Assembly (NCBI RefSeq): GCF_002222635.1
Contig: NZ_CP022415.1
Coordinates: 2,976,001-3,040,000, forward strand
Source of the DNA: Pseudosulfitobacter pseudonitzschiae
GTDB lineage: Bacteria; Pseudomonadota; Alphaproteobacteria; Rhodobacterales; Rhodobacteraceae
DNA length: 64,000 nucleotides
Reading direction: 5' to 3'
Shown piece by piece: positions 23,311-23,410 of the stretch (position 1 is the stretch's first letter; each line of letters opens with the position of its first letter). The notes beneath the pieces are model-generated. The model did not search any database. It saw only the letters and a program-made list of their open reading frames with translations, and had not been told where the DNA came from. The translations under genes and the position numbers were made by a program.

Positions 23311-23361
23311 ATCTGCCTCTATCCGCGGCCCATTTTGGGCTCGTTGGTTGTGGACAAAGAT

Positions 23362-23410
23362 GAGTCAAAGCTGATTCGCGGTCAATTTCTTTATTGAATC
23401 AATTGGTTAA
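23362..23410 (-). promoter_or_regulatory. ccrM promoter region: three GANTC sites and a CtrA-like half-site
   Basis: GAGTC at 23362-23366, GATTC at 23373-23377 and GAATC at 23396-23400 fall within 39 bases upstream of ccrM. On the minus strand TTAACC lies at 23405-23410, the half-site recognised by CtrA. In Caulobacter, ccrM transcription is driven by CtrA and silenced by methylation of GANTC sites in its promoter; the same logic is inferred here. Confidence 0.6.

What the first reader, a model, noticed from the sequence alone, without database searches (positions are those of the whole stretch)
23311..23410. Three GANTC sites and a CtrA-like half-site in the promoter of ccrM
GAGTC, GATTC and GAATC fall within 39 bases upstream of the gene for the GANTC methyltransferase itself, with TTAACC on the transcribed strand next to them. 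By chance, one GANTC would be expected about every 256 bases. In Caulobacter, ccrM is activated by CtrA and silenced by methylation of GANTC sites in its promoter. This suggests the same feedback loop, with three methylation sites, in a Rhodobacterales-like genome.
Basis: partly seen in the sequence, partly recalled or inferred. Interest (0 to 1): 0.6.

Follow-up and report, generated by a model that had tools for sequence, protein, structure and literature searches.

The report
Methylation sites inside ccrM's core promoter

Summary
In detail: three GANTC sites (23362, 23373, 23396) lie in the 100-bp rnhB-ccrM gap, in a window where GANTC is three-fold depleted. The arrangement is conserved: of 145 Rhodobacteraceae ccrM promoters, 134 keep sites 2 and 3 and 117 keep all three.

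Sites 2 and 3 lie inside a predicted sigma-70 core promoter (TTGACC, 17-bp spacer, CATCTT); the last C of site 3 is the first base of the -10. Outside the family, TTGAC-N14-GANTC-A-NNN-T recurs upstream of ccrM in 47 of 86 genomes (31 families; shuffles reach at most 4 at any offset). Site 2 slides by a few bases yet stays GANTC, which points to selection for methylation.

The CtrA half is not supported: no full CtrA site in 144 promoters, TTAACC-type in 7.

Most likely ccrM is autoregulated by methylation of its core promoter, read by RNA polymerase with GcrA (encoded here), probably as activation. A 2021 study already predicted ccrM as a core GcrA target; I found no description of the fixed geometry. 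The rpoD promoter is also GANTC-rich.

The parts
22210..23310 (-). ccrM, GANTC adenine methyltransferase gene (366 aa)
   Evidence: N6_N4_Mtase and RAMA domains; best NCBIfam model CcrM, E 1.7e-194, below its strict cut-off
23411..24013 (-). rnhB, ribonuclease HII, upstream neighbour on the same strand
   Evidence: RNase_HII
23396..23400 (-). GANTC site 1 (GATTC on the transcribed strand), upstream of the -35
   Evidence: intact in 125 of 145 relatives; gap to site 2 17-19 nt; partly confounded with the rnhB stop codon in relatives
23380..23385 (-). predicted -35 element TTGACC
   Evidence: TTGAC exactly 3 nt before site 2 in 141 of 145 relatives
23373..23377 (-). GANTC site 2 (GAATC), in the promoter spacer
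   Evidence: conserved GA..TC 98-99%, N varies; slides 2-5 nt from TTGAC in other families but stays GANTC
23362..23366 (-). GANTC site 3 (GACTC), overlapping the first base of the -10
   Evidence: TTGAC-N14-GANTC in 47 of 86 genomes outside the family
23357..23362 (-). predicted -10 element CATCTT, 17 bp after TTGACC; transcription start expected near 23350 (inferred)
   Evidence: A and final T 99% conserved in the family; A-NNN-T in 47 of 47 outgroup hits
23349..23357 (-). DnaA-box-like TTGTCCACA overlapping the expected start
   Evidence: matches the published Caulobacter DnaA consensus (PMC2877005); a match in 25 of 145 relatives against 0.3 in shuffles
23328..23340 (-). leader hairpin GCCCA-AAA-TGGGC, 17 nt before the ATG
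   Evidence: hairpin 14-23 nt before the ATG in 115 of 139 leaders against 16 in shuffles, many different stem sequences
23405..23410 (-).
   Evidence: only TAA is conserved at this place; TTAACC/GTTAAC in 7 of 144 relatives

Best explanation
The gap holds a sigma-70-type promoter for ccrM with methylation sites built into it: -35 TTGACC, 17-bp spacer, -10 CATCTT, site 2 in the spacer, site 3 touching the -10, site 1 just upstream. Shown: the sites and their conserved spacing. Inferred: CcrM methylates its own promoter and the promoter's activity depends on whether the sites are fully, hemi- or unmethylated. The mark is most likely read by RNA polymerase together with GcrA, the sigma-70 cofactor encoded in this genome, and most likely raises transcription. 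CcrM output would thus be tied to the methylation state left by the passing replication fork. CtrA is probably not the regulator here. Sub-claims: autoregulation by methylation state about 0.75, GcrA as reader about 0.5, activation rather than silencing about 0.55.
For: Geometry fixed in 145 Rhodobacteraceae promoters and in 47 of 86 genomes from other families, against at most 4 at any offset in shuffles. GA..TC conserved while N and the intervening bases vary, and site 2 slides while staying GANTC: selection for the methylation motif, not only for the promoter. GANTC is otherwise depleted and the arrangement occurs once in the genome. GcrA is encoded. Caulobacter start sites with GANTC between -35 and -10 form a timed class (PMC4287350); ftsZ, with such a site, is activated by methylation (PMC3708114). 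ccrM was predicted as a core GcrA target (PMC7987155).
Against: GcrA is not detected in several near-complete genomes that keep the geometry, and the N14 core is as frequent in GcrA-negative (10 of 18) as in GcrA-positive genomes (37 of 68). A few relatives lose sites 2 or 3. No transcription start, methylation or expression data for this organism. Silencing by methylation is reported for the A. tumefaciens gcrA promoter (PMC11514494).
Confidence: 0.6

Rival explanations
1. Negative feedback: full methylation of the core promoter blocks RNA polymerase, hemimethylation after the fork passes opens it, and CcrM shuts its own gene off once its job is done, as assumed for Caulobacter.
For: Models of Caulobacter have ccrM transcribed only from hemimethylated DNA (PMC2217572); the A. 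tumefaciens gcrA promoter with six GANTC is repressed by methylation (PMC11514494). An m6A at the -10 edge could hinder opening (inference). Sampled GC skew puts ccrM in the ori-proximal third of a replichore, so it would be hemimethylated early.
Against: The closest studied promoter with GANTC between -35 and -10 (ftsZ) is activated by methylation and most active when fully methylated (PMC3708114). No direct data here.
Confidence: 0.3
2. Caulobacter-type control: CtrA activates ccrM through the TTAACC half-site, and GANTC methylation modulates it.
For: TTAACC is present at 23405-23410. In several other families a TTAAC-like element stands at the same place upstream of site 1.
Against: No TTAA-N7-TTAA in 144 family promoters; TTAACC/GTTAAC in 7 of 144; the conserved part is only TAA. 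[quoted passage not shown]
Confidence: 0.07
3. The GANTC sites are passengers: they are kept because of overlapping constraints (the promoter hexamers and the rnhB stop codon) and methylation has no regulatory effect.
For: In 66 relatives the rnhB stop codon TGA overlaps the site 1 position. Some promoters keep -35 and -10 after losing GANTC.
Against: Spacer columns vary while GA and TC do not, site 2 slides yet stays GANTC in other families, and GANTC is depleted elsewhere. Site 1 is kept in 58 of 73 relatives whose stop codon lies earlier.
Confidence: 0.08

Closest known systems
Caulobacter ftsZ and mipZ promoters, activated by CcrM methylation (PMC3708114)
   Same: A GANTC inside the core promoter (ftsZ: between -35 and -10) or close to the start site (mipZ); the site is needed for activity and methylation raises it.
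   Different: One CGACTC motif there; two or three sites at fixed spacing here, one touching the -10, and the gene is the methyltransferase itself.
Predicted GcrA regulation of ccrM across Alphaproteobacteria (PMC7987155)
   Same: Same gene, same motif; predicted as a core GcrA target, lost in Caulobacterales and Parvularculales.
   Different: That work scored motif presence within -200 to +100 without site position; here the geometry relative to -35 and -10 is resolved, and it persists in genomes where GcrA is not detected.
Caulobacter ccrM promoter (CtrA-activated, methylation-sensitive; PMC2217572)
   Same: Same gene, GANTC sites in the promoter region, presumed methylation feedback.
   Different: No conserved CtrA site here, and the sites are embedded in a TTGAC-type core promoter.
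A. tumefaciens gcrA promoter with six GANTC (PMC11514494)
   Same: Cluster of GANTC in the promoter of a member of the CcrM/GcrA module.
   Different: Different gene, and methylation represses it there.

Membership tests
GcrA/CcrM-type methylated sigma-70 promoters | sigma-70-type -35 and -10 with standard spacing | tested here: met
   TTGACC-N17-CATCTT; A and final T of the -10 99% conserved, by conservation only; a simple consensus scan did not report it because the -10 is weak
GcrA/CcrM-type methylated sigma-70 promoters | GANTC between -35 and -10 | tested here: met
   site 2 in the spacer, site 3 at the -10 edge
GcrA/CcrM-type methylated sigma-70 promoters | GcrA encoded in the genome | tested here: met
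   PF07750 at C1:487831-488406, E 5.7e-47
GcrA/CcrM-type methylated sigma-70 promoters | promoter architecture goes with GcrA across genomes | tested here: inconclusive
   N14 core in 10 of 18 GcrA-negative and 37 of 68 GcrA-positive genomes; a diverged GcrA could be missed
GcrA/CcrM-type methylated sigma-70 promoters | sites methylated in vivo, GcrA binds, activity depends on methylation | not testable with these tools
   needs methylation sequencing, ChIP and reporter assays
CtrA-activated ccrM promoter (Caulobacter type) | full CtrA site TTAA-N7-TTAA near the promoter | tested here: not met
   0 of 144 family promoters; present in L147 and L148 of another family
CtrA-activated ccrM promoter (Caulobacter type) | conserved TTAACC-type half-site | tested here: not met
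   7 of 144; only TAA conserved
DnaA-regulated promoter | conserved DnaA box near the promoter | tested here: inconclusive
   match in the window and in 25 of 145 relatives against 0.3 in shuffles, so enriched but absent from most
CcrM methyltransferase | N6_N4_Mtase plus C-terminal RAMA domain | tested here: met
   NCBIfam CcrM model matches residues 12-360 but below its strict cut-off, 645 against 830 bits

The most novel reading that the evidence does not exclude
The ccrM promoter is an ancient, class-wide methylation sensor: m6A in the spacer and at the -10 edge is read directly by sigma-70 RNA polymerase, with GcrA an optional helper, so that the methyltransferase gene senses the methylation state of its own core promoter.
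Probability: 0.18. Interest if true: 0.75.

Novelty: new variant of a known kind. Interest (0 to 1): 0.52.

Why it matters
Control of ccrM outside Caulobacter is mostly inferred from Caulobacter. The data here suggest that this model is an exception: in most families sampled, ccrM has a sigma-70-type promoter with methylation sites at fixed places and, in Rhodobacteraceae, no conserved CtrA site. That gives exact bases to mutate to test whether a methyltransferase senses its own product. It also bears on a published suggestion that replication-mediated changes of methylation state play no major regulatory role in Rhodobacterales (PMC8116508).

Tried and rejected
CtrA full and half sites: tested and rejected. 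Chance clustering: rejected. Site 1 explained only by the rnhB stop codon: partly true but insufficient. A generic TTGAC-GANTC habit of the genome: rejected; in 464 kb of sampled sequence TTGAC-N14-GANTC occurs at three other places, none followed by A-NNN-T. Correlating the geometry with GcrA presence: no correlation. RNAalifold of the leader on a gappy MAFFT alignment gave no structure, so a position-restricted hairpin test was used. Haakonsen 2015 is not held, so exact GcrA site positions there could not be compared. The script that places the three slots prefers GANTC, so the family counts lean upward; the TTGAC-anchored outgroup scan does not have that bias, and it fixes the frame at 14 nt, so real promoters with other spacing count as misses.

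Full report
Observation. The 100-bp gap between rnhB and ccrM (23311-23410) holds three GANTC sites, at 23362, 23373 and 23396, and TTAACC on the transcribed strand at 23410-23405. GANTC is depleted in this window (68 against 216 in shuffles). Three in this gap has P about 1.6e-4 at the real rate, and no other triple in the window is as tight. The gene is a CcrM-like enzyme with methylase and RAMA domains.

Conservation in the family. I collected ccrM upstream regions from 80 named genome contigs (among them Sulfitobacter, Tateyamaria, Ruegeria, Roseovarius and Yoonia) and from genomes sampled one per genus in the same family, giving 145 distinct promoters. All three sites are intact in 117 and sites 2 and 3 in 134. 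The best-scoring gap between sites 2 and 3 is 6 nt in all 145, and TTGAC stands exactly 3 nt before site 2 in 141. Taking one per genus, 60 of 66 keep sites 2 and 3. The GA and TC columns of sites 2 and 3 are 96-99% conserved while the N column and most of the bases between the sites vary. The script that places the slots prefers GANTC, so these counts lean upward; the raw sequences are printed.

Core promoter. TTGACC is followed after 17 bp by CATCTT. In relatives the second element is mostly C-A-T/C-N-Y-T, with A and the final T at 99%. So site 2 lies in the spacer and the last C of site 3 is the first base of the -10. Promoters that lost site 2 or 3 mostly keep the hexamers, so the sites are laid over the promoter rather than being the promoter. 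A simple consensus scan did not report it because the -10 is weak. The start site (about 23350) is inferred.

Outside the family. Of 86 ccrM upstream regions from other families of the class, 47 from 31 families have exactly TTGAC-N14-GANTC, and all 47 go on with A-NNN-T (family numbers). Shuffled sequences never exceed 4 at any one offset. Four more have N15, and 18 more have a GANTC elsewhere in the spacer. Site 2 sits 2 to 5 nt after TTGAC in different lineages but remains a GANTC, which conservation of a fixed sequence cannot explain. Two members of one family (L147, L148) lack this core and carry a full CtrA site, TTAACTGGGGGTTAA.

CtrA. In the window's family no promoter has TTAA-N7-TTAA, and TTAACC or GTTAAC occurs in 7 of 144; only TAA is conserved there. 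In 66 relatives the rnhB stop codon is the TGA at site 1 (site 1 intact in 64), but site 1 is also kept in 58 of 73 where the stop lies earlier. [quoted passage not shown]

Reader and sign. GcrA is encoded here. In Caulobacter, start sites with GANTC between -35 and -10 form a timed class (PMC4287350), and ftsZ, with such a site, is activated by methylation (PMC3708114). Adhikari 2021 predicted ccrM as a core GcrA target, lost in Caulobacterales and Parvularculales (PMC7987155). This supports GcrA-sigma-70 activation. Against it, 10 of 18 genomes without detectable GcrA keep the N14 core, about the rate in GcrA-positive genomes, 37 of 68. A diverged GcrA may have been missed, or polymerase may sense the mark directly. 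Silencing remains possible (PMC2217572, PMC11514494). Sampled GC skew puts ori near the contig ends and ccrM in the ori-proximal third of a replichore (a coarse estimate), in line with PMC8116508.

Other features. A DnaA-box-like TTGTCCACA overlaps the expected start here; a match follows site 3 in 25 of 145 relatives against 0.3 in shuffles, and in 4 of 11 promoters scored as lacking site 2 or 3 against 21 of 134 that keep both (small numbers). A small leader hairpin lies 14-23 nt before the ATG in 115 of 139 leaders against 16 in shuffles, with dozens of different stem sequences.

Verdict. Observation confirmed; methylation feedback likely; CtrA part not supported. The kind (GANTC in a sigma-70 promoter) is known, and ccrM was already a predicted GcrA target. 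What I did not find described in the papers I could read is the fixed geometry across the class, the overlap with the -10, and its presence where GcrA is not found.

Noticed in passing
L276 about 442-560 (own genome C1:2568641-2568760), upstream of rpoD: The promoter region of rpoD (housekeeping sigma factor) carries six GANTC in 170 nt. In 30 Rhodobacteraceae the mean is 3.6 per 170 nt against 0.41 background, and 25 of 30 have three or more. I found no description of this.
   Followed up: partly
window 23328-23340: Hairpin in the predicted ccrM leader, conserved in position with many different complementary stem sequences across the family; no U-tract, so probably not a terminator. Role unknown.
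   Followed up: partly
window 23349-23357: DnaA-box-like sequence overlapping the expected transcription start; matches enriched in relatives, including perfect TTATCCACA boxes in three promoters that lost GANTC sites (L027, L196, L211).
   Followed up: partly
L275 543-677 (own genome C1:2848242-2848376): At least seven GANTC within 135 bases, next to a gene for a membrane protein; purpose unknown.
   Followed up: no
L147 and L148: One other family has a full CtrA site TTAACTGGGGGTTAA and six GANTC within 220 nt upstream of ccrM instead of the TTGAC-N14-GANTC core.
   Followed up: no
window, whole: GANTC is about three-fold depleted (68 against 216 expected from dinucleotide shuffles).
   Followed up: no
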